34,979 nt of DNA from Clostridiales bacterium. Lineage in GTDB: Bacteria > Bacillota_A > Clostridia > Christensenellales > Aristaeellaceae. The notes beneath the pieces are model-generated. The model was not told the DNA's origin, did no database searches, and was given only the letters and a program-made list of their open reading frames with translations. Every line of letters begins with the position of its first letter. The stretch's first letter is position 1. The stretch is from positions 1 through 34,979 of the forward strand of contig JAAYZL010000124.1 in NCBI GenBank assembly GCA_012514855.1, written 5' to 3'. Below are positions 7,867 to 34,979 of this stretch, in pieces. The position numbers and the translations under genes were made by a program.

Positions 7867-7876
7867 TTGCATACAC

Positions 7877-13454: not shown

Positions 13455-13480
13455 GATGGTATTCTATGATAAGGAATCTA

Positions 13481-13497
13481 GTTCCATATTGTGGAAC
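13481..13497. promoter_or_regulatory. Palindromic IclR-type operator in the KDPG aldolase leader
   Basis: GTTCCA (13481-13486) and TGGAAC (13492-13497) form a perfect 6-bp inverted repeat with a 5-nt centre. IclR-family proteins typically bind short palindromes of this size near their divergent targets. It lies about 20 nt downstream of the expected transcription start, so it would act as a roadblock. Confidence 0.65.
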
Positions 13498-13573
13498 AAA
13501 CGGAGCCCCGTCCGGTTCCGCGGCAGCCCGAAGGGGCGTTCCATGATCCTCCAAAAGAAAGGGCTTGTTGAGT

Positions 13574-14239: not shown

Positions 14240-15261
14240 GGTGCGTGACCTTCGGCGAGATCATGATGCGGCTGAACCCGGAGGGCTACTATCGGCTCGT
14301 CCAGGCGGACAGGCTCGAGGTCAGCTACGCCGGCGGCGAGGCGAACGTCGCGGTTTCGCTGTCGTATTTGGGCGTCGGGGCGGCGTTCGTGACGAAGCTC
14401 CCCGACAACGAGCTCGGGCAGTCGGCGGTCAACGAGCTGCGCCGCCACGGCGTCGACACGAGCCGCATCAAGAGGGGCGGGCCGCGGCTGGGCGTGTACT
14501 TCGTCGAGCGCGGCGCGTCGCAGCGCGCGTCGAAGGTCATCTACGACCGCGCGGGCTCGTCGATCGCGCTGGCCGAGCCCAACGACTTCGACTGGGACGC
14601 CATATTCGAGGGCGCCGACTGGTTCCACTTCACCGGCATCACGCCGGCGCTGGGCGAGCACCTGCCCGGAATCTGCCGGGAGGCTTGCGAGGCCGCGAAG
14701 GCGCGCGGGGTCCGGGTCAGCTGCGACCTGAACTACCGCAGGAAGCTGTGGAGCGGGGAGCGCGCGGGCCTCGTGATGGCGGAACTGATGCCGTATGTGG
14801 ACGTGCTGATCGGAAACGAGGAGGATTCCTTCGACGTGTTCGGCATCCGCGCGGAGGACAGCGACATTGGCGCCGGCAGGCTCGCGCACGAGGGCTATCA
14901 AAGCGTCGCGAGGCAGCTCGTCCGGCGGTTCGGCTTCAAGAAGGTGGCGATCACGCTGCGCGAGAGCATCTCGGCCAGCGAGAACGACTGGTCCGGCATG
15001 CTCTACGACGCCGCGAGCGACAGGGCGTACCTGTCGCCCAGCTACAGCATCAGGGTCGTCGACCGCGTCGGCGGCGGGGACTCGTTCGGCGGCGGGCTGA
15101 TCTACGCGCTTTTGAACGGGTACGCGGATCAGGACGCGCTGAACTTCGCGGTCGCGGCCTCCTGTCTCAAGCACTCGATCGAGCACGACTTCAATCTGTG
15201 CGGCGTGGAGGAAGTCCGGGCGCTCGCGGCGGGCAACGCGTCGGGGCGCATCCAGCGATAA
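14236..15261 (+). CDS. kdgK: PfkB-family sugar kinase, probable 2-keto-3-deoxygluconate kinase
   Basis: A 341-residue ribokinase-fold enzyme. The N-terminal GEIMMRLNPEGYYRLVQADRLEVSYAGGEANVAVSLSYLG-type block fits KDG kinases rather than ribokinase; RLNP and the YAGGEANVA segment are typical. The catalytic aspartate is Asp282 in the DRVGGGDSFGGG motif. It would phosphorylate KDG at O6, giving the substrate of the aldolase encoded just upstream (4-nt overlap, so coupled translation). No KDG-forming dehydratase or dehydrogenase is obvious in the window except possibly the aldo/keto reductase at 19053. KDG is therefore either made elsewhere or derived from the compound imported by the CUT2 transporter in the same operon. 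Confidence 0.88.
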   Translation: MRCVTFGEIMMRLNPEGYYRLVQADRLEVSYAGGEANVAVSLSYLGVGAAFVTKLPDNELGQSAVNELRRHGVDTSRIKRGGPRLGVYFVERGASQRASKVIYDRAGSSIALAEPNDFDWDAIFEGADWFHFTGITPALGEHLPGICREACEAAKARGVRVSCDLNYRRKLWSGERAGLVMAELMPYVDVLIGNEEDSFDVFGIRAEDSDIGAGRLAHEGYQSVARQLVRRFGFKKVAITLRESISASENDWSGMLYDAASDRAYLSPSYSIRVVDRVGGGDSFGGGLIYALLNGYADQDALNFAVAASCLKHSIEHDFNLCGVEEVRALAAGNASGRIQR

Positions 15262-21335: not shown

Positions 21336-22325
21336 TTATTTCCTGCGCAGGTTGTTCAGATTGCTGATCACGATCGCCGCGACGATGATGACTCCCTTGA
21401 TCACGGTCTGCGTATAGGTCTGTACGGCCAGCACGTCCATCGCGTTGCTCAGCACGCCCATGAACAGCGCGCCGAGAAACGCGCCGGTGATCGAGCCCTT
21501 GCCGCCGGTGAAGGTCACGCCGCCGATGATCGCGCCCGTCAGCGCGGAGGTCTCGTAGCCGCTTCCCGAGCCCGCGCTCATCGAATCCAGCCGACTTGAG
21601 TAGATGATCGCGCCGATGCCGCAATAGAGGCCGGTGATCGCAAACGTGAGAATCTTGTCGAGGTCGACGTCGATGCCGCACAGGCGCGCGTTCTCCGCGT
21701 TGCCGCCGATGGCCACGACGCGGCGGCCGAACTTCGTGCGGTTGACGATGAAGTACATGAGCACGACCAACACCAGGAAGATCACAAGCGTCAGCGGGAC
21801 GACGCCGAAGAAGCGCATGTCGTTGATGTTGTCAAACGCGCGCTTGAACGACATCACGCGGCCGTTCGTGAGGATCAGCGAGACGCCGTAGTACACGCCG
21901 CTGAGGCCCAGCGTGATGATCAAGGACGGGCACTTCGACTTGGCCGTGATGATGCCGTTGATCACGCCGCACAGAAGCCCCATGCCCAGCCCGATCACGA
22001 CGGCCAGCCAAGGGGCCATCCCGCCTTCGATCCCCTTGCCGTTGCCTACGATCAGCACGGCCATCGTGCAGCCGGACAGCACCATGATGCTGCCCACGGA
22101 CAAATCCACCTCGCCGCCAAGCATCAGCAGCGACATGCACATTGTAATCGTGCCCACGACCGAGATCTGCTGAAAGATCAAAATGATGTTGTTGAGCTTG
22201 ATGAAGCGGCTGTTGAGCATCGTCACCACGAAGCCCATTGACACCAGCACTGCGAACAGTATGACGCGCTGGTCGGCGGCGATTTCCCTGAACGATTTTC
22301 TCTCGCTTTCAAATGGCTGCGTCAT
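21336..22325 (-). CDS. CUT2-family sugar ABC transporter permease (RbsC-like)
   Basis: A 329-residue membrane protein with about nine hydrophobic segments. Diagnostic blocks are NIILIFQQISVVGTITMCMSLLMLGGEVDLSVGSIMVLSG, the coupling loop TKFGRRVVAIGGNAENARLCGIDVD, and GAIIGGVTFTGGKGSITGAFLGALFMGVLSNAMDVL. The start overlaps the ATPase stop as ATGA. It is the last gene of the minus-strand operon read from 26119-26147. It is only distantly similar to the permease at 15282, so the two CUT2 systems are not a recent duplication. Confidence 0.94.
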   Translation of the reverse strand: MTQPFESERKSFREIAADQRVILFAVLVSMGFVVTMLNSRFIKLNNIILIFQQISVVGTITMCMSLLMLGGEVDLSVGSIMVLSGCTMAVLIVGNGKGIEGGMAPWLAVVIGLGMGLLCGVINGIITAKSKCPSLIITLGLSGVYYGVSLILTNGRVMSFKRAFDNINDMRFFGVVPLTLVIFLVLVVLMYFIVNRTKFGRRVVAIGGNAENARLCGIDVDLDKILTFAITGLYCGIGAIIYSSRLDSMSAGSGSGYETSALTGAIIGGVTFTGGKGSITGAFLGALFMGVLSNAMDVLAVQTYTQTVIKGVIIVAAIVISNLNNLRRK

Positions 22326-23824
22326 GCCGTATGAACCTCCAATGCGTATCGGATGATCGAGTTTTCGCTGATCTCGCCCTCTTCGAGGATTTTGACGATC
22401 CTGCCCTTCGCGATCACCATGACCCTATCCGAGATCGAGATGAGCTCGGGCATGTCCGAGGAGATCATGATGATGGTCTTTCCCTGCTTCGCGAGCCCGG
22501 TCATGATGCGGTAGAACTCGGCCTTCGAGTTCACGTCGATGCCGCGCGTCGGCTCGTCAAAGATGAAGACGTCGCTGTTGGAGAACAGCCACTTGCCGAG
22601 CACGACCTTTTGCTGATTGCCTCCGGACAGGTTCCGGGCAGCCATCATCGGGCTCGTCATCTTGATCTTCAGGCCGTCGATGATTCCCCGGACGAGCGGG
22701 ATCAGGTTCCGGACGCGGATGAAAAAGCCCGGGATCGTCGTCTGCATGCCCACCTCGGTCAGGTTTTCGACGATCGGCGCGTTCAGATTGAGCCCCAGCC
22801 GCTGGCGGTCCTCGGTGATGTAGGCGATTCGGTGCCGGACGCTGTCCCGCGGGCTCTTGATCTGCAATTCCTGGCCCTCGTAGAGTATGCGGCCGCCATA
22901 TTTGCGCCGGACGCCGAAGATTGCGTTGGCAATCTCGGTGCGCCCCGCGCCGACCATGCCCGCGACGCCCAATATCTCCCCCCTGCGCACGTCGAATGAG
23001 ATCGGCTCGCCGTCCGGCGTGACGCGCAAGTCCTTAACCTCAAGCGCCGTGCCGCCGATCCCGTATTCTTCCTTTTGGTAGAACATCGTGGCGCTGCGGC
23101 CGACCATGTCGCTGACGACTTGATCCAGATCGACCTTGCCGCCGCCGCTGTCATAGGTGCGGATCGATTTGCCGTCGCGGATGACGGTGATCCGGTCGGC
23201 GATCTGCTTCACTTCCTTCAGGAAGTGCGATATGTAGATGACGCCGACACCCTGCCGGGAGATGCGGCGGACGAGGTCGAGCACCTTGCCCGCGTCCGCG
23301 GCGTTGAACATCGAGGTCGGCTCGTCCATGATCAAAATGCGCGGCTCCATGCTGATCGCCTTGATGATCTTCAGAAACTGCTGGTCAGACACCGACATGT
23401 TCGCGACCATCTGGTTGAGCTTCATCCTGAGCCCCAGCTTTTCCAGGAGTTCCTGCGCGCGCCGGACCTCGTCCCTGTGCCGCATGACGCCGAAGCGGCT
23501 CATTTCCTGCCCGACGAATATGTTCTCTACGACGTTCATCCACGGAACCAGCAGATTTTCCTGATAGACGACGCCGATGCCGAGCCTCTTCGAAAGCGCC
23601 GCCGTCATATGCAGGTACTCGACGCCGTCGACCAGAATGGTGCCGCGGTTGGGCAGGTGCGCGCCGGTCAGCACCTTGATCAGCGTCGATTTGCCCGCGC
23701 CGTTCTCGCCGACCAGGCAGTGCACCTCGCCGGGGTACAGATCCATCGAGAGGCCGTTCAGCGCCTTGACGCCGGGGAACGACTTCTCGATGTCCCGCAT
23801 CTCGACGATCGGGGTTTTCGGCAT
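22322..23824 (-). CDS. CUT2-family sugar ABC transporter ATPase, two fused nucleotide-binding domains (RbsA-like)
   Basis: 500 residues from ATG 23824 (GTG 23833 is an alternative, with AAAGAG close upstream). Domain 1 has Walker A GENGAGKST, a degenerate signature MSVSDQQ, Walker B ILIMDEPTSMF (Met-Phe where Ala-Leu is usual) and ISHF at the switch. Domain 2 has the degenerate Walker A GMVGAGRTE, canonical LSGGNQQK and FIFDEPTRGIDV. This is the usual functional asymmetry of RbsA. It energises import together with the permease (4-nt overlap) and the binding protein upstream. Confidence 0.93.
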   Translation of the reverse strand: MPKTPIVEMRDIEKSFPGVKALNGLSMDLYPGEVHCLVGENGAGKSTLIKVLTGAHLPNRGTILVDGVEYLHMTAALSKRLGIGVVYQENLLVPWMNVVENIFVGQEMSRFGVMRHRDEVRRAQELLEKLGLRMKLNQMVANMSVSDQQFLKIIKAISMEPRILIMDEPTSMFNAADAGKVLDLVRRISRQGVGVIYISHFLKEVKQIADRITVIRDGKSIRTYDSGGGKVDLDQVVSDMVGRSATMFYQKEEYGIGGTALEVKDLRVTPDGEPISFDVRRGEILGVAGMVGAGRTEIANAIFGVRRKYGGRILYEGQELQIKSPRDSVRHRIAYITEDRQRLGLNLNAPIVENLTEVGMQTTIPGFFIRVRNLIPLVRGIIDGLKIKMTSPMMAARNLSGGNQQKVVLGKWLFSNSDVFIFDEPTRGIDVNSKAEFYRIMTGLAKQGKTIIMISSDMPELISISDRVMVIAKGRIVKILEEGEISENSIIRYALEVHTA

Positions 23825-23865
23825 GCACTTCACCGCTCTTTCCGTTCGGAAGGTTGCTTACAGGA

Positions 23866-23897
23866 TTTCCGGGAGGCACAAACGCGCCTCCCGGAAA
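23866..23897 (-). promoter_or_regulatory. Stem-loop between CUT2 binding-protein gene and ATPase gene
   Basis: A perfect 12-bp stem (23866-23877 with 23886-23897) with an 8-nt loop starts 18 nt after the binding-protein stop on the minus strand. TCCTGTAAG follows, not a T-run. It has the same position and likely role as the hairpins at 5532-5567 and 18942-19010. Confidence 0.65.
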
Positions 23898-23915
23898 CTG
23901 CTGAATACACTCGGG

Positions 23916-24899
23916 TCAGATGGCGGGCACGTAGGGGCCGATGTTTGCGACGACCCACTGATAGCCGCCGTCGAGGTCGTCCCAGAACAGCCACTCGTCG
24001 AAGTTCGCCATGTCGATCGGGATGACCGGCAGCGCGATCTTGTCGCCGCCCCACGTCTCGCCGTTCAGCTCCGCCCACGCCATGCCGAACGCGATCAAGC
24101 CCTGCAGGTCCGCGGGCGCGGTCATATTCGCGATCATCTCTCCGTTCTCCATCGCGATATGGCTGTCCTCGGAGCCGCCGGTCGAGATGACGCCGATGTC
24201 GAGCCCGGCCTCCTTGAGCGCCTGATAGGCGCCCTTCGCGACGACGTCGTCCTGCGCGAACACGATGTTGAAGTCATATCCGCCGTTGATGTAGGAGGAC
24301 ATCACGTTGTAGGCGCCCTCGATCGTCCAGTCGTCGTCCGTCAGCTGCGCGGCGAGGGTCACCTTGTCCGCGAAATCCGCGAGCGCCTGGTTGACGCCGT
24401 CCTCGTAGATCTCGGTGACGCCGATGCCGTAGTAGCCGCTGACGTACACGAGCTTCGCGTTTTCGATGTTCTCGGCGGCCCACTTCACGGCCGCGTAGCC
24501 GATGTCGTTGTACTGGCAGGCGACCTGGCCCGCGGTCTCGCCGGCGCTCTCGTCATAGAACGAGTTTTCCGCGATGATCGGAATGCCCGCGTCATTGCAC
24601 ATCTTGATGATGGTCTCCCCCGCGGTCGTCGGGAACATCACGATGATGTCCACTTCCTGATTGATCAACTGCTGCGCCTGGTCGACCTGCACGGCGGCGT
24701 CCTGCTTGCAGTCCAGCTCGATGATCTTGCAGCCGGCCTTGTCCGCGCCGTACTTCAGGCCGCTGTACGTCGCGATGTTCCAGGACAGGCCGAGGTCCCA
24801 CGCCAGATAGCCGATGGTAAAGTTGTCTTTTTCCGCCAAACAGGGTGCGAAAGCGAGCGTCGTGGCCAATGCGAGCAACAGACAGACGAGTTTCTTCAT
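23916..24899 (-). CDS. Sugar ABC transporter substrate-binding protein (ribose-type)
   Basis: A 327-residue Peripla_BP_4 protein. The signal peptide MKKLVCLLLALATTLAFAPCLA has an AxA-like CLA end before EKDNFTIGYLAWDLGLSWN, and no lipobox. Conserved points include QQLINQEVDIIVMFPTTAG, GIPIIAENSFYD, GYYGIGVTEIYEDGVNQAL and FAQDDVVAKGAYQALKEAG, i.e. the classic ribose-binding layout. ATG 24899 is preceded by GGGAGGGG. The MocA-type dehydrogenase is upstream in the same operon, so the ligand is probably a sugar or polyol that is oxidised after import. Confidence 0.94.
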   Translation of the reverse strand: MKKLVCLLLALATTLAFAPCLAEKDNFTIGYLAWDLGLSWNIATYSGLKYGADKAGCKIIELDCKQDAAVQVDQAQQLINQEVDIIVMFPTTAGETIIKMCNDAGIPIIAENSFYDESAGETAGQVACQYNDIGYAAVKWAAENIENAKLVYVSGYYGIGVTEIYEDGVNQALADFADKVTLAAQLTDDDWTIEGAYNVMSSYINGGYDFNIVFAQDDVVAKGAYQALKEAGLDIGVISTGGSEDSHIAMENGEMIANMTAPADLQGLIAFGMAWAELNGETWGGDKIALPVIPIDMANFDEWLFWDDLDGGYQWVVANIGPYVPAI

Positions 24900-25021
24900 A
24901 GAAGTCCCCTCCCACGCGATTTATTTGTCGGGGCGGCCCCGATCAAATTTCACATACCAAGGAAGAACATGAATACCTCCAAAGGGCCGGCGCGACGGGG
25001 AATGAATATTCCGGATTGGTA

Positions 25022-26053
25022 TCAGTACGCGAACTCCCGCAGGTCGGCCATGCGATTCTCGCGCTCGGCGCCGTACATCGCCCAAATGGCTTTCTGGTCC
25101 TTCAGGGCCTCGACGCCGCTCGGCATGGGCTTGACGCCTTCGATCACGCAGTCGGCGAAATATTCGAGCTCGTATTTCGGCAGGTGGCTGGACGGCTCGC
25201 ACGCGAAGATCAGCTCCTCGACGTCGCTCTTCTCCGCGTAGTTGCCGGGATCGGTCGACCGGTGCAGATACATCTTCCCCTCGTTCAGCGCGCACTCGAC
25301 CATGCCGTCGCGGAAGAACGCGTGCACGGCGTAGCTGTGCCTGGTGCCCTTCGCGCCCCAGGTGCCGAAGTGGTAGCCCAGTTTCCCGCCCTCGAACTCG
25401 AAGATCGCGTTGCTCGTGCCCTCCATCTCCATCCACGGGGTGCAGAGGTTCGTGCCCAGGTGCGCGCCCCGGACGGGCTTTCCCATCATCCAGAACAGGA
25501 GGTCCACATAGTGGCACCCGTGGCTGAACAGTTGCCCGCCGCCGAGCTTTTTCGCGCTGCGCATCCAGGAGCCCTCGGGAAGATAGGTATATTGCTCCGT
25601 CCAGATGGACATCTGGAAGCACTCGCCGTAGCGACCGTCGTCGATGATCTTCTTGAGCTCGCGAATCTGCGGGTGGAAGCGCATGATGTAGCCGACCATC
25701 AGCTTCGCCCCGCTCTCCTTCGACGCGCGGATCAGGTCGAGGCACTCGCGCTCGTCGAGCGCCAGCGGCTTTTCCATCAGCACGTGGATGCCGCGATGGA
25801 GACAGTCGATGCCGATCGGGTGGTGCAGGTGGTGCGGCAAAGCCAATAGCGCCGAGTCCGCCGCGCCAAGCACCTCGCGGTAGTCGGCGGAGGCGGTCGA
25901 AGCGCCCAGCAGCTCGGCCATCGACCGTGCCTTCTGGAGGTCGACGTCGACGGTCGCGATGACCTCGATCTTGTCCTTCAGTTCGTCAAACGCGCGCTTG
26001 TGTATGTCCGACATGAAGCCACAGCCCACGATGGCCAGCCTGATCTTTTTCAT
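25022..26053 (-). CDS. Gfo/Idh/MocA-family oxidoreductase
   Basis: A 343-residue NAD(P)-dependent sugar or cyclitol dehydrogenase. The Rossmann motif IVGCGFMSDIHKRAF is at 8-22, the family Lys is in EKPLAL (94-96), and a conserved SHGCHYVDLLFWMMG block follows. ATG 26053 has GGGAGG about 6 nt upstream; the open frame extends 22 codons further but is Cys/Arg-rich and unlikely. It is the first gene of the operon with the CUT2 binding protein, ATPase and permease. A 122-nt gap to the binding-protein gene contains a perfect 15-nt palindrome (24928-24942) and no T-run. Substrate unknown, but the divergent DhaK/L kinase genes hint at a short-chain polyol or ketose pathway. Confidence 0.92.
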   Translation of the reverse strand: MKKIRLAIVGCGFMSDIHKRAFDELKDKIEVIATVDVDLQKARSMAELLGASTASADYREVLGAADSALLALPHHLHHPIGIDCLHRGIHVLMEKPLALDERECLDLIRASKESGAKLMVGYIMRFHPQIRELKKIIDDGRYGECFQMSIWTEQYTYLPEGSWMRSAKKLGGGQLFSHGCHYVDLLFWMMGKPVRGAHLGTNLCTPWMEMEGTSNAIFEFEGGKLGYHFGTWGAKGTRHSYAVHAFFRDGMVECALNEGKMYLHRSTDPGNYAEKSDVEELIFACEPSSHLPKYELEYFADCVIEGVKPMPSGVEALKDQKAIWAMYGAERENRMADLREFAY

Positions 26054-26118
26054 GGCACGCCTCCCGCACAAACAACATTTTCGGCAAACCCGACAAACGG
26101 GGAACTCATCTTTTCCCA

Positions 26119-26147
26119 ATTATACAGCGGCGAAAATCCGATGTCAA
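26119..26147 (-). promoter_or_regulatory. Consensus promoter of the MocA/CUT2 operon
   Basis: On the minus strand TTGACA (26147-26142), exactly 17 nt, then TATAAT (26124-26119): a perfect sigma-A consensus. It begins 4 nt after the stop codon of the DeoR remnant. The leader (about 26111-26054) carries three direct repeats of the form GTTTGYCG/GTTTGTGCG, which could be regulator-binding repeats. Such a strong promoter normally needs a repressor. Confidence 0.88.
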
Positions 26148-26732: not shown

Positions 26733-26755
26733 GCGACAGAAAGTGAGGAGATTTG

Positions 26756-27742
26756 ATGAACAAGATATTGAACACAGCCGAGCGCTACACGGACGACATG
26801 CTCCGCGGCATCTACGCCGCGCATCCCGACATGGTAAAATACGTATCGGAGGACATGCGCTGCTACTGCGCCGCAAAAAAGACGCCGGGCAAGGTGGCCA
26901 TCGTAACCGGGGGCGGGACGGGGCATCTGCCGCTGTTTCTCGGCTACGTCGGCGACGGTCTGCTCGACGGATGCGGCGTCGGCGGCGTGTTCCAATCCCC
27001 GTCGTCGGAGCAGATCTTCGAGATTTCGAAGGCCGTCGAAGCCGGCGCGGGCATACTGTACCTGTACGGCAACTACACGGGCGACATCATGAACTTCGAC
27101 ATGGCCGCGGAGCTGTGCGAGATGGAGGGCATCGAGACGAAGTCGATCGTCGGCGCGGACGACGTGCTCTCCGGAGCGCCCGAGGTGCGCCGCGGCGTGG
27201 CCGGAATCTTCTTCATGTACAAGGCCGCCGGCGCAAAGGCCAAGCAGATGGGCGACCTCGAGGCCGTCTACGAGGCGGCGAAGAAGGCGGGCGAGCGCGT
27301 GCGCACGGTCGGCTTCGCGCTGACGCCGTGCATCATCCCCGAGGTCGGCAAGCCGAACTTCACGCTTAACGACGGCGAGATGGCGATGGGCATGGGCATA
27401 CACGGCGAGCCCGGCATATGGAACGGGCCGGTCAAGACCGCGCGCGAGATCGCCGAGGAGTCGCTCGACGCGCTGCTCAACGACATGCCCCTCGCTGAGG
27501 GCGAGGAGGTCGCGGTGCTGATCAACGGCCTGGGCGCGACGTCGGTCGAGGAGCTGTATATCCTGAGCGGCGACGTGCACGCGATTCTTGCCGGGCGCGG
27601 CGTCCGCGTGTACCGCACGTTCGTCGGCGAGTACGCGACGTCCATGGAGATGGCCGGCGCTTCGATCTCGCTGTGCAAGCTGGACGGCGAGATGAAGGAA
27701 TGGCTGGATACCCCCGTCCGCACCCCCTTCATCCGCCTGTAG
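26756..27742 (+). CDS. DhaK-family ketose kinase, substrate-binding subunit (dihydroxyacetone kinase-like)
   Basis: 328 residues of the DhaK fold. The substrate-binding covalent histidine is conserved (GIHGEPG, His216). The general acid/base pair appears as His57 (GGGTGHLP, 52-59) and Asp110 (GNYTGDIMNFDMA). In classical dihydroxyacetone kinases the first loop reads GGGSGHEPAHAGYVG; here it is GGGTGHLPLFLGYVG, a difference that lines the substrate pocket. I therefore infer a kinase for another ketose, such as a tetrulose or branched keto sugar. ATG 26756 follows GAGGAG at 5 nt. The partner subunit is encoded 15 nt downstream. No DhaM-type phosphotransferase is present here, so the phosphoryl donor (ATP or PTS) is open. 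Confidence 0.9.
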   Translation: MNKILNTAERYTDDMLRGIYAAHPDMVKYVSEDMRCYCAAKKTPGKVAIVTGGGTGHLPLFLGYVGDGLLDGCGVGGVFQSPSSEQIFEISKAVEAGAGILYLYGNYTGDIMNFDMAAELCEMEGIETKSIVGADDVLSGAPEVRRGVAGIFFMYKAAGAKAKQMGDLEAVYEAAKKAGERVRTVGFALTPCIIPEVGKPNFTLNDGEMAMGMGIHGEPGIWNGPVKTAREIAEESLDALLNDMPLAEGEEVAVLINGLGATSVEELYILSGDVHAILAGRGVRVYRTFVGEYATSMEMAGASISLCKLDGEMKEWLDTPVRTPFIRL

Positions 27743-27757
27743 CGGGAGGCGAGTGCC

Positions 27758-28399
27758 ATGACAACGATCCGCATGGGAGACCTGCCCGGCCTGTTCGCGG
27801 CGGTCGGCGCGGAGATGGAAAAGCGCGCCGCCGAACTGTGCGAAATGGACGCCAGGATGGGCGACGGCGACCTCGGCCTGACGATGAAGAAGGGTTTCGC
27901 CGCGATGCCGTCCATCTTGGAGGCGATCGACGAACCCGATCTCGGAAAGCGGCTGATGAAGGCCGGCATGAAGATGGCGGCGCTGGTCCCCTCGACGATG
28001 GGCACGCTGATGGCCTCCGGCGTGATGGGCGGCGGCAAGGCGCTGACGGGCCGCGACCTGATCGATGCCGCCGGCTATCGGGACTACCTCGTCGGCTTCG
28101 CGGAAGGCATCGCCAGGCGCGGCAAGTGCTCGCGCGGCGACCGCACGGTGCTCGACGCCATCGGCCGGGCGGCGGACAAGCTCGCCGCGGCGATTGCGGA
28201 GCGGCCGGGCCTGTCGCTTGCGGAAGCGGCGGAGATCGCACTGCTCGGCGCGCGGGAGGGCGTCGAGGCCACGCGCGCGATGGAGCCGAAGTTCGGCAAG
28301 GCCGCCGTGCACCGCCTGGCCGCCGTCGGACAGGCCGACCAGGGCGCGTGCGCCGGCATGTACATGATCGCCGGCTACCGGGACTTCCTCGTTCGGTAG
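27758..28399 (+). CDS. DhaL-family kinase subunit, nucleotide-binding
   Basis: 213 residues of the all-helical DhaL fold. The magnesium-binding aspartates are visible in MDARMGDGDLG (Asp31, Asp36, Asp38). The segment GKCSRGDRTVLDAIGRA corresponds to the usual GxKPGDRTMLDAL block, and GQADQGACAGMYMIAGY to the GxxDPGA block near the C-terminus. It provides the ADP/ATP site that phosphorylates the ketose held covalently by the DhaK-type subunit. It is the last gene of the operon, ending 31 nt before a strong bidirectional hairpin. Confidence 0.92.
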   Translation: MTTIRMGDLPGLFAAVGAEMEKRAAELCEMDARMGDGDLGLTMKKGFAAMPSILEAIDEPDLGKRLMKAGMKMAALVPSTMGTLMASGVMGGGKALTGRDLIDAAGYRDYLVGFAEGIARRGKCSRGDRTVLDAIGRAADKLAAAIAERPGLSLAEAAEIALLGAREGVEATRAMEPKFGKAAVHRLAAVGQADQGACAGMYMIAGYRDFLVR

Positions 28400-28477: not shown

Positions 28478-28906
28478 TCACTTCTCTTCCGTTTCTTCCT
28501 CGGCCAGCACATCGTAGCCGATGCGGTTGTAGAGGTCGAGCTGCGGCGGGGTGGCGACGCCGATGGTCACGAACCTGCCCTCGCTGTCCTTGGGCTTTCG
28601 GGTGCCGTGGTAGACGCCCGGCGGCGCGTAGAGCAAATCGCCCGCCTTCACGGGAATCCAGCGGTCGTAGAGGTAGAACTCCCCCTCGCCCTCAAAGCAG
28701 AACACCAATTCCTCCGAGAGCGGATGGACGTGCGGCTCGAACTCCATGCCCGGCTCATGCACGCCGCTGGTGATGCCCACGTTGCGGGAGCCGAGCCGGG
28801 GCGTGAGCACCAGATGTACGTCCAATCCCGTGGACTTGGCCCAATTGTAGCCCTCGTGGATGTTGAAAATCCCGCCCTGCTTGCGCACCTGTTCCTTGCT
28901 ATGCAT
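28478..28906 (-). CDS. Cupin-domain protein
   Basis: A 142-residue single-domain cupin. Motif 1 is GMEFEPHVHPLSEELVFCFEGEG, giving metal ligands His59, His61 and Glu65 or Glu66. Motif 2 is PPGVYHGTRKP, giving His100. Such proteins are metal-dependent isomerases, epimerases, dioxygenases or ligand sensors. It is the last gene of the HAAT-MocA-isomerase-PreA operon, 3 nt after the flavoprotein gene, with AAGGAGG inside that gene's end. A sugar or keto-acid isomerase role is plausible but unproven. Confidence 0.88.
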   Translation of the reverse strand: MHSKEQVRKQGGIFNIHEGYNWAKSTGLDVHLVLTPRLGSRNVGITSGVHEPGMEFEPHVHPLSEELVFCFEGEGEFYLYDRWIPVKAGDLLYAPPGVYHGTRKPKDSEGRFVTIGVATPPQLDLYNRIGYDVLAEEETEEK

Positions 28907-28909
28907 CTC

Positions 28910-30067
28910 CTATACCTCCTTGGGATGAATTTGGATCGCGCCGAAGCGGCAGACGCTCGGGCAGAGCCCGCAGCCGTCGCACCTCTCCGGATCAATTTCG
29001 CACTTGCCGGTCTCGAGGGAGATCGCGTCGTAGATGCAGACCTTTTCGCATTTTCTGCAGCCCGTGCACTTCGCCTGGTTGCACTCGGAGACATAGCGCG
29101 TCGCGCGGTCGTACTGCTCGATGGTGAGCATGTTCTTACCCGCGACGCCTACGATGTCCGAGAGATTTTCAAGCGCATGGCGCTCCATGTATTTTTCGAT
29201 CTGCCCGAGCATGACTTGAACGTACTCATAGCCCTTGAGGTAGACCGCCGCCGCGATCTGCGCGGTCTCGGCGCCCGCGAGCAGGCACTTGACCACGTCC
29301 TCGCCGGTCATGATGCCGCCGGTGGCGGAGATCACGGCCCTGACGTTGGGCGCGGTGGAGATGATCCAGCGCAGCACGGAATTGAGCGCCCAGCTTCCGC
29401 CGTGCCCGGCAAAGCCGCCGTGGAGGATGGGCCGCATCTGATCGATGTCGATCTCGATGCCGGTGGCGCGGTTCACCATGGTCAGCCCGTCCGCGCCCGC
29501 CCGGTCGAGCGCCACGGCGGTGTGGATCACATTGGCCACCTGGCCGGACATCTTGGGGATCACCGGGATTTTGACCGCGGCCTTGCAGTCCCTGAGCGCG
29601 CCGACGGCGATGGCGTGTCCGTCGTTGGAGGGGTCGCGCATCAGAAGCCCCGAGGGGCAGCTCGGCACGATCTCGATGGCGTCCGCGCCCGCGTCCTCGC
29701 AGGCGACGGCGTACTCGGCCCAGGTCTCGGGCGCGATGCAGTTGATGCTGGCGATGATCGGTATCGAGGTGCGCTCCTTGGACTTCAACACGGTCTCGGC
29801 ATATTCCTCGATGCCGCCGTAATAGGCCTGCTCGTAGCTGTAGAAGGTGCAGCTCTCGTAGCCCGGCATGCCGCTTCGCAGGACCTTGAAGCGCGGGAAG
29901 GGGTTGTAGCGCATCAGCACCTCCTCCTGCACGGACTTGAGCACCACCGCGCTGAAGCCCGCGTCCTCGCACTTGACGGCCTCCCGGTAGTCCATGGTCG
30001 TTCCGGCGGAAGCGGCGATGATCGGATGCGCAAGCTCCAGGCCCGCGTATCGAACCCTCATATTCAT
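28910..30067 (-). CDS. PreA-like dihydropyrimidine/dihydroorotate dehydrogenase-family flavoprotein with 2[4Fe-4S] ferredoxin domain
   Basis: 385 residues. An FMN-binding TIM barrel of the dihydroorotate/dihydropyrimidine dehydrogenase family (1 to about 310) carries the active-site cysteine in PSCPSG (Cys137) and the FMN-phosphate motif SATGGIMTGEDVV. A C-terminal ferredoxin domain has two CxxCxxCxxxC clusters (Cys334/337/340/344 and Cys363/366/369/373). This is the architecture of PreA (NAD-dependent dihydropyrimidine dehydrogenase subunit). No PreT-like NADH subunit is present in the window, so electrons probably come from ferredoxin or an unlinked partner. Its place in an operon with a sugar-type dehydrogenase, isomerase and cupin makes a classical pyrimidine role uncertain. 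Confidence 0.9.
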   Translation of the reverse strand: MNMRVRYAGLELAHPIIAASAGTTMDYREAVKCEDAGFSAVVLKSVQEEVLMRYNPFPRFKVLRSGMPGYESCTFYSYEQAYYGGIEEYAETVLKSKERTSIPIIASINCIAPETWAEYAVACEDAGADAIEIVPSCPSGLLMRDPSNDGHAIAVGALRDCKAAVKIPVIPKMSGQVANVIHTAVALDRAGADGLTMVNRATGIEIDIDQMRPILHGGFAGHGGSWALNSVLRWIISTAPNVRAVISATGGIMTGEDVVKCLLAGAETAQIAAAVYLKGYEYVQVMLGQIEKYMERHALENLSDIVGVAGKNMLTIEQYDRATRYVSECNQAKCTGCRKCEKVCIYDAISLETGKCEIDPERCDGCGLCPSVCRFGAIQIHPKEV

Positions 30068-30079
30068 GGCGATTTCCTC

Positions 30080-30976
30080 CTACAGAGCATTGAGAATCCC
30101 CCGGATGTAGTTCGCGCCCTTGGGCATGCCCTCGCTCGCGTCCGGCAGATCGACCCTCTGCCAGCGCCGCTCATATTCCAGCGAGATCCAGCCGTCGTAG
30201 CCGATCTCCCTGAGCGATCTGAGGATGCCGGGCCAGTTGAGAACGCCGTCCCCCGGGATGCGCGAATGGACGGTGCGGTCCTCCTCGTCGATGTGGGAAA
30301 CCATGTTGAATTTGGGCTTCCGGGGCGCGCCGCCGCGATAGACCAGATCCTTGCAGTGGACGAAGAAGATCTTGTCCTTTTGCAACCGAATGGCCTCCTC
30401 GAATTCCTCGGCCGGGAAAAAGGCGAGGTTGGCCTGATCGTAGAGCACGCCGACCGCTTCGTGGTTGGCGGCGTCGACGACGCGCATGGTCTCGCGCGCG
30501 GAGGTGGTCATGGTGCCGAAGTGGTTTTCCAGACACAGCTTCACGCCGCTTTCCCGGGCGTAGTCGCCGCATTCGCGCATGGACTTGACCAGCGCCTCCA
30601 ATTTCTTTCCGTCCGGGTCGGTCTCGCCGTCCACGAACTTGCCGCCGTAGATGCGGATGAAATGCGCGTCCAGGAGCTTCGCCATGTCGATCACGCGCTT
30701 GAGAGCCCGGCACTCCCTTTGGCGCTCCATTTCGTCGAGGCTGTTGAAGAGGTTGAGATACGGCGTGAGGGCCGCGACCTCGAGGCCCGCCGCGCGCACC
30801 TTCCCGAAGACTTTTATTACCTCCTCGTCGCTCGCCCGAAGCGGGATCGCGCAGGGATATCCGTCCGTCTGGACGATGATCTCAATGCCGTCCAGGCCGA
30901 TCTTCGAAAAGAGCTCGATGGCTTCGTTAAGCGTATACTCGGGAGTTCCCATCGTATGTCCGGAAATTCGCATCAT
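30080..30976 (-). CDS. Sugar phosphate isomerase/epimerase (xylose-isomerase-like TIM barrel)
   Basis: A 298-residue protein starting at ATG 30976, overlapping the MocA-type stop as ATGA. Metal-site residues typical of the family appear in order: IEIIVQTDG, HFIRIYGG, LCLENHFG (Glu-Asn-His), YDQANLAFF, FVHCKDLVYRG (His-x-Lys-Asp) and the final WISLEYE. Hydroxypyruvate isomerase, inosose isomerase/dehydratase and tagatose epimerase all share this pattern. With a Gfo/Idh/MocA dehydrogenase upstream the pair resembles inositol-like or keto-sugar catabolism. Exact reaction unknown. Confidence 0.9.
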   Translation of the reverse strand: MMRISGHTMGTPEYTLNEAIELFSKIGLDGIEIIVQTDGYPCAIPLRASDEEVIKVFGKVRAAGLEVAALTPYLNLFNSLDEMERQRECRALKRVIDMAKLLDAHFIRIYGGKFVDGETDPDGKKLEALVKSMRECGDYARESGVKLCLENHFGTMTTSARETMRVVDAANHEAVGVLYDQANLAFFPAEEFEEAIRLQKDKIFFVHCKDLVYRGGAPRKPKFNMVSHIDEEDRTVHSRIPGDGVLNWPGILRSLREIGYDGWISLEYERRWQRVDLPDASEGMPKGANYIRGILNAL

Positions 30977-31941
30977 TTCGCACTCCAATCCTTTGAGAGA
31001 TCCGGCAGGCCCGCCGCCCGGAGAATTCTGTCCATCAGCAAATGCGTCTTGTAGGCGTCCTCGGCGCTGGTCAGCGGCTGACGGCGGGTCTTGACGCACT
31101 CGAAGAAGTGCCTGACGCAGCCCTCGAAGCCCAGGCGGTCCACGACCGTGCACCAGCCCTTGTTAAGCGGGGTCATGGTCTGACCCTCCTCGTGGTCGGG
31201 ATAGATCACGCGGTAGCTGTCGAGATTGTCGCTGATGGCGGTGATGCCGCCGCCGTACATCTCGATCTGTTCGCGCCACTGGCCCGCCTCGCGCGAGGCG
31301 GCGAGCAGGCCCACGCCGCCCGATTCAAAGCCCAGCATGGCCGTGCACAGGTCCTCGTAAAAGGGATCGGTGAATTTGCTCCTGGCCTCCACCGTCTCGC
31401 ACTCCCCGAGTATGTGGCGCAGAAGATCCACCATGTGGATGGCGTTTTCCAACGTCCCCCGGAATTCCCTGAACTCGCGGCTCTTGTTGGCGATCACCAT
31501 GTGCGGCCGCCTGTCCCCAAACGCCGCCAGCGCGCGCGCGTTGGCCGGGGCGAAGCGACGGTTGAACGCCACCATGACCAATTGCCCGGATTTTGCCGAG
31601 GCGTCGGCCAGAACCTCGCACTCCCCGAGCGTCATCGAAAGCGGCTTTTCGCAGAGGATGTCGAGCTTTTTTTCCATCAGCGGGATCAGGTACTCGCGGC
31701 GGACGGTCTTGGGGGTCAGGAGCACGCAGCAATCGATGTCCGTGTCCAGGAACTCCCCGAAGGTCTCGCAGGCCTTCTTCGCCCCGTACCGGGCGGCGCT
31801 CTCCTGCGCGTGGGCGTACGTTCGGCTGTAGACGGCGGAGATCTCCACCTCCGGCATGGCGGCCAGGATCGGAAAGTGCGCGATCTGCGCGATTGCTCCC
31901 GTGCCGATCACGCCGACCTTGAATTTTCTCCCCTCGCTCAT
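30973..31941 (-). CDS. Gfo/Idh/MocA-family oxidoreductase
   Basis: A 322-residue NAD(P)-dependent dehydrogenase. The Rossmann motif is GVIGTGAIAQIAHFP at the N-terminus, with the conserved CEKPLSMTLGE and MVAFNRRFAPANARAL blocks. A histidine in ENAIHMVDLLRHILGE is in the usual catalytic position. Its start overlaps the LivF-type stop as ATGA, and its stop overlaps the isomerase start in the same way. Expression is thus coupled to the importer on one side and to the isomerase on the other. Its sequence differs clearly from the MocA-type protein at 25022, so they act in different pathways. Confidence 0.92.
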   Translation of the reverse strand: MSEGRKFKVGVIGTGAIAQIAHFPILAAMPEVEISAVYSRTYAHAQESAARYGAKKACETFGEFLDTDIDCCVLLTPKTVRREYLIPLMEKKLDILCEKPLSMTLGECEVLADASAKSGQLVMVAFNRRFAPANARALAAFGDRRPHMVIANKSREFREFRGTLENAIHMVDLLRHILGECETVEARSKFTDPFYEDLCTAMLGFESGGVGLLAASREAGQWREQIEMYGGGITAISDNLDSYRVIYPDHEEGQTMTPLNKGWCTVVDRLGFEGCVRHFFECVKTRRQPLTSAEDAYKTHLLMDRILRAAGLPDLSKDWSAK

Positions 31942-32657
31942 CGACAGACGTCCTCCCTTGTCTCGCCCAGATAGGCGCTTTGAATTTGCGGGTCATTGCG
32001 AAGCTCCCGGGACGCCCCCTCGCGCACGACCTTGCCGTTTTCGAGCACATACGTGTAATCGGAAATCGCCATCGCCTTGCTGGCGTTCTGCTCCACGAGG
32101 AGAACCGTGATCCCCGAATCGTTGATCCTGCGGATGATCTTGAACACCTGATTGACGATGATCGGGGCCAGGCCCAGGCTCGGTTCGTCCAGCAGGAGGA
32201 TCTCCGGCTCGGCCATCAGGCCCCTTGCGATGGCCAGCATCTGCTGTTCGCCGCCGGAGAGCGTGCCCGCCATCTGTTTTTTGCGCTCCCCGAGAATCGG
32301 GAACAGCTGATACATCTCCGGAATCTTGCGGGCCGCGTCCTTGGCGCTGCGGCGCGCGCCGCCCATGACGAGGTTCTCGGCGACGGTCAGGTTGGGGAAA
32401 ACGTGGCGTCCCTCCGGCACCTGCACCACGCCCTCGCGCACGACTTTGTGCGCCGCCGCGGGAAGCGGCCTGCCGTCCAGGAGGATTTCCCCGCTCTTTC
32501 TGCGCACGACGCCGGAGATGGTGTTGATGAGCGTGGACTTGCCCGCGCCGTTGGAGCCGATGATGGAGACGATCGAGCCCTTTTCCACGAAGAAGGAGAC
32601 GTCCTCCAGCGCCACGATGTGATCGTAATTCACCGAGAGGTTCGAAATCCTCAGCAT
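31938..32657 (-). CDS. livF: HAAT-family ABC transporter ATPase, LivF type
   Basis: A 239-residue ATPase with Walker A GSNGAGKST, the LivF segment VPEGRHVFPNLTVAENL, signature LSGGEQQM, Walker B ILLLDEPSLGL and Gln at the switch position (VEQNASKAM), as usual for LivF. Its start overlaps the LivG-type gene by 7 nt and its stop overlaps the MocA-type gene by 4 nt. Compared with the LivF-type protein at 2116 it shares the family blocks but differs throughout, so the second HAAT system is a distinct lineage. Confidence 0.94.
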   Translation of the reverse strand: MLRISNLSVNYDHIVALEDVSFFVEKGSIVSIIGSNGAGKSTLINTISGVVRRKSGEILLDGRPLPAAAHKVVREGVVQVPEGRHVFPNLTVAENLVMGGARRSAKDAARKIPEMYQLFPILGERKKQMAGTLSGGEQQMLAIARGLMAEPEILLLDEPSLGLAPIIVNQVFKIIRRINDSGITVLLVEQNASKAMAISDYTYVLENGKVVREGASRELRNDPQIQSAYLGETREDVCR

Positions 32658-33421
32658 TCGGCCTCCTCCTCTCCGATGTAGGCAAGGATGACCTCGGGAT
32701 TTTTCTGGATTTCGGCGGGCGTGCCGCTGGCCAGCAGGCTTCCGAAGTTGACGACATAGATGCGCTCGGACAGCTCGTTGACCACCTGCATGCGGTGCTC
32801 GATGATGAGAATGCCGAAGTGAAATTTCTCCTTGAGCATGACGACGCGGTCGATGAAGTCCTTGACCTCGCTGGGATTGAGTCCCGCCGCCGGCTCGTCC
32901 AGCATCAGGAGCTTTGGAGCCGTGACGATCGCGCGCGCCAGCTCCACCCGGCGCTGCAGGCCGTAGGGCAGGTTGGAGGGCTGCTCGTCCCCGTACTCCA
33001 GGAGGTTGACCAGCTTCAGCGCCTCCAGGGCCTTTTCGCGGTTTTCCCTGTCGATTTTGCGCTTGTTGGGCAGCGTCATCATGGCGCTCAAAATGTTGTA
33101 GCGGCTGATGGAGTCCAGCGCGGTCATCACGTTCTCCAGGACCGTCAGGCCGCGGAAAAGGCGGATGTTCTGGAAGGTGCGGGCGATGCCCAGCCGCGCG
33201 ATTTCGTGCTGCGGCCGTCCCACCAGATTTTTGCCCTCAAACAGGATCTCACCCGCGTCCACGCGGTACACGCCGGACACGAGATTGAAAAGCGTCGTCT
33301 TGCCCGCGCCGTTGGGGCCGATGATGGAGAAGATCTGATCCTTGTCCACATGCAAGGAGACGTCCTTGACCGCCGCTACGCCGCCGAAGTTCTTGGCCAG
33401 GCCGCGGATTTCCAGCAGCAT
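32651..33421 (-). CDS. livG: HAAT-family ABC transporter ATPase, LivG type
   Basis: A 256-residue ATPase. Walker A is GPNGAGKTT, the family block GIARTFQNIRLFRGLTVLENV follows, the signature is LPYGLQRRVELARA, Walker B is LLMLDEPAAGL, and the switch His is in IIEHRM. It is separated from the LivM-type gene by a single nucleotide. It pairs with the LivF-type ATPase. Confidence 0.94.
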   Translation of the reverse strand: MLLEIRGLAKNFGGVAAVKDVSLHVDKDQIFSIIGPNGAGKTTLFNLVSGVYRVDAGEILFEGKNLVGRPQHEIARLGIARTFQNIRLFRGLTVLENVMTALDSISRYNILSAMMTLPNKRKIDRENREKALEALKLVNLLEYGDEQPSNLPYGLQRRVELARAIVTAPKLLMLDEPAAGLNPSEVKDFIDRVVMLKEKFHFGILIIEHRMQVVNELSERIYVVNFGSLLASGTPAEIQKNPEVILAYIGEEEAEC

Positions 33422-33422
33422 T

Positions 33423-34316
33423 TCACCGACCTCCCTTTTCTGCGGCCTTCCGGGAGCGCCCGGTGAGGAAGCGGCCTATTTTTTTCCAGGTCCTGAAGTC
33501 CAGCTCGGTCTCCCCGAACAGGCCCTGCGGCCGGAAGTTGACGATGAAGAGCACCACCAGGCAGTAGATGACCACGCGCAATTCGTTGGAGAAGCGGAAA
33601 AGCTCCGGCAACAGCTCCAGCAGCACGCCCGCGAAAATCGCGCCGGTCAGGCTGTTGACGCCGCCGAAGAACACGATGATGATCCACATCGAGGACTGCG
33701 CCCAGCCGAACGAGGAGGAATCGAGGTAGCCCAGCGTGTGCACGTACACAAACCCGCCCAGCGCCGAGATCACGCCCGCCAGCACGAACATCAGAAGTTT
33801 CACCCGGGAGACGTTGATGCCCATGGCGGCGGCGGCGAGCTCGTCCGACTTGATGGCGATGCATTCGTGCCCGAAGCGCGATTTTTTGAGGTTCCAGATG
33901 GCGGCGATCACCAAAATCAGAATCGCGACGATCATCCAATTGTCGATGTACTTGGGGATCGCCGTCAGCCCCAGCGCTCCGCCGGTCATGCTCGAGGAGT
34001 TGTCCAGGAACGCGACCAGCGCCTCTCCGAATCCCAGCGAGACGATCGCCACATAGTCCCGCCGGAGCTTCACCGCCGGGAGCCCGATCAACAGCCCGAA
34101 CAGGGCGCCCACCAGAAGCGCCGCGGGAAGGGTCACATAAAACGGCAGCCCGTAATACTTCGAGAGCATGGCCGTGGTGTAGCCGCCGACCGCCATGAAC
34201 GCCGCCTGGCCCATCGAGAACATGCCGGTCAGCCCCGTGAGCACGTAGACGCCCAGCATGCCGATCAAAATCACCAGCACGTTGCGTATGAGGAAGTTGA
34301 GCATGAACGCAAGCAT
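33423..34316 (-). CDS. livM: HAAT-family ABC transporter permease, LivM type
   Basis: A 297-residue polytopic permease with about nine hydrophobic segments. Hallmarks are VYVLTGLTGMFSMGQAAFMAVGGYTTAML, the coupling loop SRFGHECIAIKSDELAAAAMGINVSRVKL and GWAQSSMWIIIVFFGGVNSLTGAIFAGVLLELLPELF. The C-terminus is a basic tail. ATG 34316 is preceded by GGGGGGGAAG in the 13-nt gap to the LivH-type gene. Confidence 0.94.
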   Translation of the reverse strand: MLAFMLNFLIRNVLVILIGMLGVYVLTGLTGMFSMGQAAFMAVGGYTTAMLSKYYGLPFYVTLPAALLVGALFGLLIGLPAVKLRRDYVAIVSLGFGEALVAFLDNSSSMTGGALGLTAIPKYIDNWMIVAILILVIAAIWNLKKSRFGHECIAIKSDELAAAAMGINVSRVKLLMFVLAGVISALGGFVYVHTLGYLDSSSFGWAQSSMWIIIVFFGGVNSLTGAIFAGVLLELLPELFRFSNELRVVIYCLVVLFIVNFRPQGLFGETELDFRTWKKIGRFLTGRSRKAAEKGGR

Positions 34317-34329
34317 CTTTCTTCCCCCC

Positions 34330-34979
34330 CTACGCCTTCTCGGTCGCGAAGTTGCCGGCCAGGCCCTGCGGCCGGAGGAACAGGAACAGCAGCATGAAGA
34401 TGAACGTTCCCACCGGCGCGAGGCCGGTTCCCAGGATGACGCCGCAGGCGGTCTCGACGATGCCGAGGATCAGCGCCGCGAACAGCGCGCCGTTCATGCT
34501 GCCCAGGCCGCCGATCACGCAGACCATGAAGCCCTTGACCGTATAGAGGCTGCCGATCTGCGGGGTAAGGCTCGTGCGGATGCCCACAAACACCCCCGCG
34601 ATGCCGGCCAGCGCGCCGGCCACAAAGAAGGTCCAGAGCACGACGCGGTTGACGTTGACGCCCATGAGGCTGGTCGTGCGCGGGTCCATCGAGAGCGCGC
34701 GGATGGAGACGCCGAGCCGGGTGCGCTTGAGCACGATCACCAGAAGCAGTATCGCCGCCGCCGACACGCCCAGCATCACCAGGTTCGCCATGTCGAAGCT
34801 CAAATTGCCGATCTTTTGGAAGCGCTTGGTGAAAAAGCTGGGATAGGCGTAATAGGTTCCGCTGAACCGGAGCGCGATGATATTCTGAAGCAGCATGCCC
34901 ATCGTGATCGAGGAGACGAAGAACAAAGTCATGTTCTTCGACTTCTGCCGGAGGCGATGGAAGCTGATGAATTCCACGA
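34330..34979 (-). CDS. livH: HAAT-family ABC transporter permease, LivH type (N-terminus outside window)
   Basis: 216 codons up to the window edge, with the frame still open at 34979, so the N-terminal third is missing. The family features that remain are the coupling loop TRLGVSIRALSMDPRTTSLMGVNVNRV, GSLYTVKGFMVCVIGGLGSMNGALFAALILGIVETA and the terminal FLFLRPQGLAG. A GTG at 34977 is not a real start because the LivH N-terminal block (VLNFAQGD-type) is absent. No binding-protein gene is inside the window; it probably lies just upstream. Confidence 0.92.
   Translation of the reverse strand, partial: VEFISFHRLRQKSKNMTLFFVSSITMGMLLQNIIALRFSGTYYAYPSFFTKRFQKIGNLSFDMANLVMLGVSAAAILLLVIVLKRTRLGVSIRALSMDPRTTSLMGVNVNRVVLWTFFVAGALAGIAGVFVGIRTSLTPQIGSLYTVKGFMVCVIGGLGSMNGALFAALILGIVETACGVILGTGLAPVGTFIFMLLFLFLRPQGLAGNFATEKA

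What the first reader, a model, noticed from the sequence alone, without database searches (positions are those of the whole stretch)
28478..34979. HAAT importer welded to a MocA dehydrogenase, TIM-barrel isomerase, PreA-like Fe-S flavoprotein and cupin: no known pathway fits
Eight genes in one direction have gaps of at most 13 nt and three ATGA or longer overlaps, so the transporter and enzymes are one expression unit. HAAT (Liv) systems normally carry amino acids, urea or short amides, but the enzymes next to it look like sugar or cyclitol oxidation and isomerisation plus a PreA-type reductase that lacks its PreT partner. A compound that is oxidised (MocA), isomerised (TIM barrel), reduced by ferredoxin (PreA-like) and handled by a cupin would be new to me. 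The combination, not the single families, is the unusual part.
Basis: partly seen in the sequence, partly recalled or inferred. Interest (0 to 1): 0.72.

Follow-up and report, generated by a model that had tools for sequence, protein, structure and literature searches.

The report
Acid-uptake operon with PreA-like reductase
This looks like part of an undescribed bacterial route for eating a sugar-acid-like compound, in which a relative of the enzyme that reduces uracil appears to have been re-tooled for a different substrate.

Summary
The gene layout is real: eight same-strand genes (livH cut by the window end), gaps of at most 13 nt, overlaps of 7, 4 and 4 nt, and a hairpin after the last gene. 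MocA, TIM-barrel and PreA-like genes lie together in 9 of 9 other genomes where I found this PreA-like clade, in Bacillota and Chloroflexota. The HAAT importer is not the fixed part: a NMT1/TauBC importer replaces it in 5 of those 9, and two relatives of the MocA-TIM pair with no PreA in the 19.9 kb read sit with TTT or TRAP importers. A DapA-family aldolase gene lies near the pair in 10 of 12 loci. The PreA-like protein keeps the DPD-type fold, catalytic Cys and two [4Fe-4S] motifs, but three of five pyrimidine-contacting side chains are changed and no PreT relative is encoded in the ten loci read. Best reading: a catabolic module for a carboxylated carbohydrate with a PreA-like redox step of unknown substrate. 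The module is conserved; the chemistry is inferred. Ten literature searches, several with capped lists, showed no description.

The parts
34330..34977 (-). livH-like permease, incomplete at the window end
   Evidence: PF02653; best NCBIfam UrtB 111 and LivH 95 bits, below cut-offs; 94% identical to the complete L001 copy
33423..34316 (-). livM-like permease
   Evidence: PF02653; LivM 162 bits, cut-off 366
32651..33421 (-). livG-like ATPase
   Evidence: PF00005 + PF12399; LivG 292 bits, cut-off 362
31938..32657 (-). livF-like ATPase, 7 nt overlap with livG
   Evidence: PF00005; LivF 252 bits, cut-off 441
30973..31941 (-). Gfo/Idh/MocA oxidoreductase, ATGA overlap with livF
   Evidence: PF01408; best NCBIfam IolG 92.5 bits, cut-off 355; EKP lysine and the His of NAIHMVD (NSIHMVD in L003, NAIHVID in L007) invariant in 10 rows
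30080..30976 (-). xylose-isomerase-like TIM barrel (AP_endonuc_2)
28910..30067 (-). PreA-like FMN / 2x[4Fe-4S] flavoprotein
28478..28906 (-). small Cupin_2 protein
   Evidence: PF07883; relatives in 4 of 11 other MocA-TIM loci: L001, L002, L022, L063
28429..28463 (-). terminator-like hairpin after the cupin gene
   Evidence: 15-pair stem, z -3.28; not listed by the simple scan

Best explanation
The operon is one form of an exchangeable catabolic module for a small carboxylated carbohydrate (a sugar acid, or a cyclitol-like acid). The Liv-type ABC importer brings the acid in. MocA oxidises one hydroxyl to a ketone with NAD(P). The metal-dependent TIM barrel then epimerises or dehydrates the keto compound. 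The PreA-like enzyme does a ferredoxin-linked redox step on the product, most likely reducing a C=C conjugated to a carbonyl as PreA does with uracil, with Cys137 as proton donor. A DapA-family class I aldolase, encoded nearby in most relatives, would finally release pyruvate. Shown here: gene set, conservation, predicted fold, conserved catalytic residues, changed pyrimidine pocket, exchange of importers. Inferred: every substrate, the order of steps, the electron donor, and the direction of the PreA-like reaction.
For: MocA, TIM and PreA-like genes together in 9 of 9 clade genomes found by PreA searches; of 6 relatives at 36-42% identity with enough contig, none carries that orthologous pair, although L053-L055 have a distant MocA and L025 a distant TIM. 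Importer type over 12 MocA-TIM loci: HAAT 5, NMT1/TauBC 5, TTT 1, TRAP 1. DapA-family gene within about 10 kb in 10 of 12 loci, and in G001 on another contig beside LacI and TIM2 genes; GxK[FY]S and GT[TN]GE motifs in 7 of 7 aligned rows, YNIP in 6 and YGIP in 1. L062 adds KduD above its curated cut-off (342.7 against 338.85 bits), a PfkB kinase and a 2-hydroxyacid dehydrogenase. The window's own PfkB gene has a 54-57% relative beside DapA in G680. PreA-like: Cys137 and eight cluster Cys in 35 of 35 rows; pig DPD N609, N668, T737 align with S77, V134, R200 (R in 35 of 35), while N736 and S670 are kept. HAAT and NMT1 types separate in the PreA, MocA and TIM trees, and each mixes Bacillota and Chloroflexota, which suggests transfer as a set.
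Against: No substrate, activity or growth data. No DapA relative was found in the window's 35 kb. The enzyme hits except KduD lie far below curated cut-offs, so functions rest on superfamily chemistry. KduD was seen in L062 only and no KduD relative is in the ten PreA loci. MocA and TIM also occur near PTS, SIS and UroD genes that fit sugar or glycoside routes. That the four importer types share acids as cargo is general knowledge, not a test; HAAT also carries amides and NMT1 also pyrimidines. L062 and L063 hold the pair with no PreA in the 19.9 kb read (those genomes were not searched for PreA), and 39 of 55 TIM homologue rows on contigs of 8 kb or more share no contig length with a listed PreA row, so the TIM step does not seem to need PreA. 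The family tree puts L004 outside both importer groups.
Confidence: 0.5

Rival explanations
1. Oxidation-elimination cleavage of a glycoside or anhydrosugar, as for levoglucosan (LgdA, B1, B2, C) or C-glycosides (DgpA, B, C). MocA makes a 3-keto sugar, the TIM barrels eliminate and hydrate, a second MocA reduces, and the PreA-like enzyme reduces the released ring or the glycal.
For: L002 and L022 carry second MocA and TIM genes, in L022 in one run with cupin and PreA; MocAx has levoglucosan dehydrogenase as best but sub-threshold match (84.8 of 650 bits); the TIM model matches 2-hydroxy-3-keto-glucal hydratase best by Foldseek; the levoglucosan locus has LacI and an ABC importer.
Against: MocAx and TIMx orthologues are seen in L002 and L022, and at 28-29% in L063, of 12 loci (L001 ends 0.4 kb after the cupin); TRAP and TTT importers are not typical for glycosides (general knowledge); the DapA aldolase has no place in that route. 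No search for a DgpB-like subunit was made.
Confidence: 0.17
2. Cyclitol catabolism: an inositol- or quinate-like ring is oxidised by MocA, dehydrated by the IolE-like TIM barrel, and the enone is reduced by the PreA-like enzyme in place of IolD-type ring opening.
For: Best NCBIfam matches are IolG for MocA and IolE/IolO for TIM; in L054 a PreA relative lies with MocA, LacI and an ADH that matches scyllo-inosose 3-dehydrogenase, though threonine dehydrogenase and HpnZ score higher.
Against: Scores are far below cut-offs (92.5 of 355; 71.9 of 290 bits); no IolD, IolB or IolJ was recognised among the genes scanned, but they were not searched for by name; acid importers would require quinate-like rather than inositol-like substrates.
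Confidence: 0.18
3. A pyrimidine or nucleoside route in which the PreA-like protein is an ordinary dihydropyrimidine dehydrogenase.
For: Closest solved fold is DPD; NMT1 proteins can carry pyrimidines (general knowledge); a 41% PreA relative in L054 lies next to a RihC-like nucleoside hydrolase gene.
Against: Three of five pyrimidine-contacting side chains changed in the clade; G001 also holds a PreA 56% identical to E. coli PreA, with a PF14691 match next to it; no PreT relative in ten clade loci. Hydantoinase and ureidopropionase genes were not searched for.
Confidence: 0.07
4. The importer carries branched-chain amino acids and merely lies upstream of an unrelated enzyme operon.
For: LivHMGF and Peripla_BP_6 families.
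Against: ATGA overlap between livF and MocA; HAAT genes lie directly upstream of MocA-TIM-PreA in 5 of 12 loci; the four module binding proteins lack the LivK/LivJ Glu of the GPEG motif at the aligned site (a weak alignment).
Confidence: 0.06

Closest known systems
E. coli PreTA and mammalian DPD (FMN-domain part)
   Different: About 29% identity to E. coli PreA; pyrimidine contacts N609, N668, T737 replaced; no PreT relative in the loci read; separate clade, support 100/99
Levoglucosan pathway LgdA/B1/B2/C (PMC7676230, abstract and passages seen)
   Same: MocA-family enzyme plus sugar-isomerase-annotated proteins, LacI and ABC importer
   Different: No PreA-like, DapA or cupin in the passages seen; sugar-type ABC importer
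C-glycoside cleavage DgpA/B/C (PMC8563793, passages seen)
   Same: MocA oxidation followed by a TIM-barrel enzyme in gut bacteria
   Different: TIM acts with a beta subunit; no PreA-like, DapA or acid importer in the passages seen
IolG/IolE inositol route, and the L-glucose route through 5-keto-L-gluconate and D-tagaturonate (PMC12632266, abstract seen)
   Same: Ketone formation, then a later aldolase; MocA and TIM matches to IolG, IolE and IolO
   Different: Scores far below curated cut-offs; extra Fe-S flavoprotein
KDG-type sugar-acid routes (KduD, KDG kinase, KDG aldolase; recalled)
   Same: DapA-family aldolase, PfkB kinase and KduD in relative L062
   Different: No KduD relative in the ten PreA-containing loci read

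Membership tests
PreA / dihydropyrimidine dehydrogenase | DHOD-type FMN domain plus two C-terminal [4Fe-4S] motifs | tested here: met
PreA / dihydropyrimidine dehydrogenase | Catalytic Cys (C671 in DPD) | tested here: met
   Cys137 in 35 of 35 rows, aligned to C671
PreA / dihydropyrimidine dehydrogenase | Pyrimidine-contacting N609, N668, S670, N736, T737 | tested here: not met
   S77, V134, S136, N199, R200: two of five kept in the window protein
PreA / dihydropyrimidine dehydrogenase | Encoded with PreT | tested here: not met
   No blastp relative of E. coli PreT (E 1e-5) among frames of 70 aa or more in the window, L001-L008 and L022; L001 ends 0.8 kb after PreA. GltD-like genes (PF14691) exist elsewhere in 9 of 9 genomes
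PreA / dihydropyrimidine dehydrogenase | NCBIfam NF006183 cut-off | tested here: not met
   169.6 of 335 bits
HAAT importer (Liv type) | Two PF02653 permeases, two ATPases, Peripla_BP_6 binding protein | tested here: met
   Permeases and ATPases in the window; the binding protein lies outside it and was seen in L001 and L002
HAAT importer (Liv type) | Amino-acid binding site in the binding protein | tested here: inconclusive
   Alignment with LivK/LivJ lacks the GPEG Glu at the aligned site, but the alignment is weak there
Xylose-isomerase-like sugar enzymes (IolE, epimerases) | Metal ligands Glu, Asp, His, Glu | tested here: met
   E147, D177, H204, E264 invariant in 18 rows; ligand roles recalled from the family
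Inositol route | IolG and IolE curated cut-offs | tested here: not met
   92.5 of 355 and 71.9 of 290 bits
Sugar-acid catabolism with KDG-type aldolase | Aldolase encoded with MocA-TIM | tested here: inconclusive
   Linked in 10 of 12 loci, not found in the window, on another contig in G001
Sugar-acid catabolism with KDG-type aldolase | Growth on or turnover of a sugar acid | not testable with these tools
   Needs experiment

The most novel reading that the evidence does not exclude
The clade is a new enzyme class: a ferredoxin-linked, DHOD-fold reductase (or desaturase) for an unsaturated keto sugar acid, with Arg200 binding the carboxylate where DPD has Thr737, working in a so far undescribed anaerobic sugar-acid pathway that spreads between Bacillota and Chloroflexota and swaps importers among transporter families.
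Probability: 0.33. Interest if true: 0.75.

Novelty: new variant of a known kind. Interest (0 to 1): 0.52.

Why it matters
DHOD-fold Fe-S enzymes with known jobs act on pyrimidines (general knowledge). A conserved branch that has lost most pyrimidine contacts and travels with carbohydrate enzymes would extend that fold to carbohydrate catabolism and correct labels such as 'dihydroorotate dehydrogenase (fumarate)', which sources give to several clade members. The exchange of importers around a fixed enzyme core also gives a practical rule: the enzymes, not the Liv label, tell what is being eaten.

Tried and rejected
Pyrimidine role for the PreA-like enzyme: rejected as main reading because of the changed pocket and a separate PreA in G001. 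Amino-acid importer as the fixed part: rejected because the importer changes. Cupin as a partner of PreA: weakened, since a 58% cupin relative sits with distant MocAx and TIMx and a SIS gene in L063 and the L002 cupin lies 6 kb from PreA. KdgF-like role for the cupin: considered from memory, not tested. Viral contigs: 82 stretches matched a pattern, none confirmed. Plasmids: no match at E 1e-40.

Contig-length matching of PreA and TIM homologues: with all 93 clade rows entered, 21 of 74 rows on contigs of 3 kb or more share an exact contig length with a listed TIM row; with the first 52 rows it was 21 of 42. The reverse is against strict linkage: 16 of 55 TIM rows on contigs of 8 kb or more match a PreA row.

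Prevalence: PreA clade or relatives in 1 of 295, 1 of 297 and 6 of 298 genomes at E 1e-90 and 5 of 391 at 1e-85, each including the centre genome; 2 of 2 and 1 of 7 in the genera of G002 and G001. TIM: 1 of 291, 1 of 7 and 3 of 375, each including the centre. In the large searches only the first few candidates per genome were scored. The promoter scan gave nothing usable, because the operon start lies outside the window. Structure searches list no C-deglycosidase among the rows shown, which excludes nothing. Several neighbouring genes had no family match.

Literature: looked around this gene set and for DPD residues. In the listings shown no paper describes the set. Lists were capped (15 of 23,106; 15 of 53; 12 of 676; 10 of 11), and the library holds open-licence papers only.
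Full report
Observation. The minus strand of 28478-34977 holds, in order, livH (cut by the window end), livM, livG, livF, a Gfo/Idh/MocA oxidoreductase, a xylose-isomerase-like TIM barrel, a PreA-like protein and a small cupin. Gaps are 13, 1, 12 and 3 nt; livG/livF overlap by 7 nt, livF/MocA and MocA/TIM by 4 nt, taking the TIM start at 30976 by analogy with L001. A 15-pair hairpin follows the cupin. On the other strand dhaK and dhaL genes (26753-28399) converge on the operon. No whole genome is held for the window.

Relatives of the PreA-like gene. The protein search (best 120 of 5845 rows shown; 8000 candidates scored) gave 93 rows at 48-100% identity, one of them a 251-residue fragment, then a drop to 45% or less. 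One scan of genome contigs returned eight loci, and a search of 298 genomes of the class of G002 added one more clade member, G680, which shares a genus with G002. In these nine loci the MocA and TIM orthologues lie beside PreA, or one DapA gene away from it, in 9 of 9. Six relatives at 36-42% identity with enough contig (L023, L025, L053-L056) lack that orthologous pair in 6 of 6, though L053-L055 have a distant MocA gene and L025 a distant TIM gene; L024 and L026 are contigs of 3.3-3.5 kb and were left out. In a tree of 27 proteins the window gene and the nine others form one group with support 100/99.

The importer is exchangeable. The window, L001, L002, L003 and L022 have LivHMGF, with a Peripla_BP_6-type binding protein in the four complete cases (Pfam for L001 and L002; blastp for L003 and L022; livF of L001). 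L004-L008 have instead a LacI gene, a TauC-like permease, a NMT1 binding protein and a TauB-like ATPase, with PreA directly downstream, then a DapA-family gene, MocA and TIM (Pfam/NCBIfam for L005; blastp for the rest). Searching with the TIM alignment found the pair in two more genomes of the order of G004 (3 of 375 matched, one being G004 itself): L062 with a TTT importer and L063 with a TRAP importer, neither with a PreA relative in the 19.9 kb read. Those two genomes were not searched for PreA elsewhere. Over these 12 loci the importer is HAAT in 5, NMT1/TauBC in 5, TTT in 1 and TRAP in 1. The loci were chosen by PreA or TIM hits, so the counts describe this sample only. From general knowledge, what these families most often share is small organic acids; HAAT carries amino acids, amides and aromatic acids too.

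Downstream enzymes. A DapA-family gene lies within about 10 kb of the pair in 10 of 12 loci. None was found in the window. In G001, the genome of the closest relative L001, it is on another contig beside a LacI gene and the second TIM barrel TIM2. The alignment of seven rows shows YNIP (YGIP in L003), a GxK[FY]S lysine and GTTGE or GTNGE, as expected for a class I pyruvate aldolase or a related dehydratase (roles recalled). L062 also has KduD above its curated cut-off (342.7 against 338.85 bits), a PfkB kinase and a 2-hydroxyacid dehydrogenase. The window's own PfkB gene (13453-15261) has a 54-57% relative next to DapA in G680. These genes point to sugar-acid catabolism with a 2-keto-3-deoxy acid intermediate. 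Against that, KduD was seen in one locus only, and no KduD relative is in the ten PreA loci.

MocA and TIM. Both score far below every curated family; best are IolG (92.5 of 355 bits) and IolE (71.9 of 290). The four metal-ligand positions of the TIM barrel are invariant in 18 rows. Its model (pLDDT 90.3) matches 2-hydroxy-3-keto-glucal hydratase best by Foldseek, and Art22 and ketose 3-epimerases by Z (28-31, partly tied). This allows epimerisation, dehydration or hydration and does not decide between them. TIM homologues are more widespread than PreA: of 55 listed rows on contigs of 8 kb or more, 16 share a contig length with a clade PreA row and 39 do not (a proxy).

History. In the PreA, MocA and TIM trees of the module the HAAT loci form one group (support 100/99 or better) and the NMT1 loci another (ultrafast bootstrap 88 to 100). 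In the larger family tree L004 falls outside both groups instead (94/86). Chloroflexota and Bacillota are mixed in both groups. That fits transfer of the enzymes as a set.

Cupin. Relatives are in L001, L002, L022 and L063 only, of 11 other loci. In L002 and L063 it lies with a second MocA and a second TIM rather than next to PreA, so it may belong to that side module.

Verdict. The set is a real, rare, conserved module of unknown substrate. I put 0.5 on a carboxylated-carbohydrate route with a PreA-like redox step, 0.17 on glycoside cleavage, 0.18 on a cyclitol route, 0.07 on pyrimidines and 0.06 on an unrelated amino-acid importer. Ten searches of an open-licence library, with capped lists, showed no description (nine around the gene set, on DPD), which is weak evidence of novelty.

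Noticed in passing
window 2-9196: A second HAAT-type importer (2116-6742, binding protein PF13458) lies between two zinc alcohol dehydrogenase genes and near a LacI gene (8183-9196), again an importer of this family in a carbohydrate-like setting.
   Followed up: no
window 21336-26119: Ribose-type ABC importer genes with a second MocA gene (25022-26119) on the same strand just upstream.
   Followed up: no
window 13453-15261: A PfkB kinase gene whose 54-57% relative lies beside DapA and TIM2 near the module in G680 (L022, L066); it may serve the same pathway.
   Followed up: partly
window 26753-28399: DhaK and DhaL genes converge on the operon; both are below DhaK/DhaL equivalog cut-offs.
   Followed up: partly
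L053 9269-14386, L054 5347-10458, L055 5121-10261: A 41-42% PreA relative is followed by a gene of about 600 aa (fumarate-reductase-like in L054), a LacI gene and a zinc ADH; in L054 a RihC-like nucleoside hydrolase gene is divergent.
   Followed up: partly
L025 3850-12717: LacI, DapA-like, PreA relative, DctM, TIM and UbiD genes lie together in one genome of the class of G002.
   Followed up: no
L002 11219-17530 and L022 3204-9468: PTS ascorbate-type EIIBC, SIS, UroD (MtaA/CmuA-like), a second TIM, a second MocA and the cupin form a side module in two related Chloroflexota genomes.
   Followed up: partly
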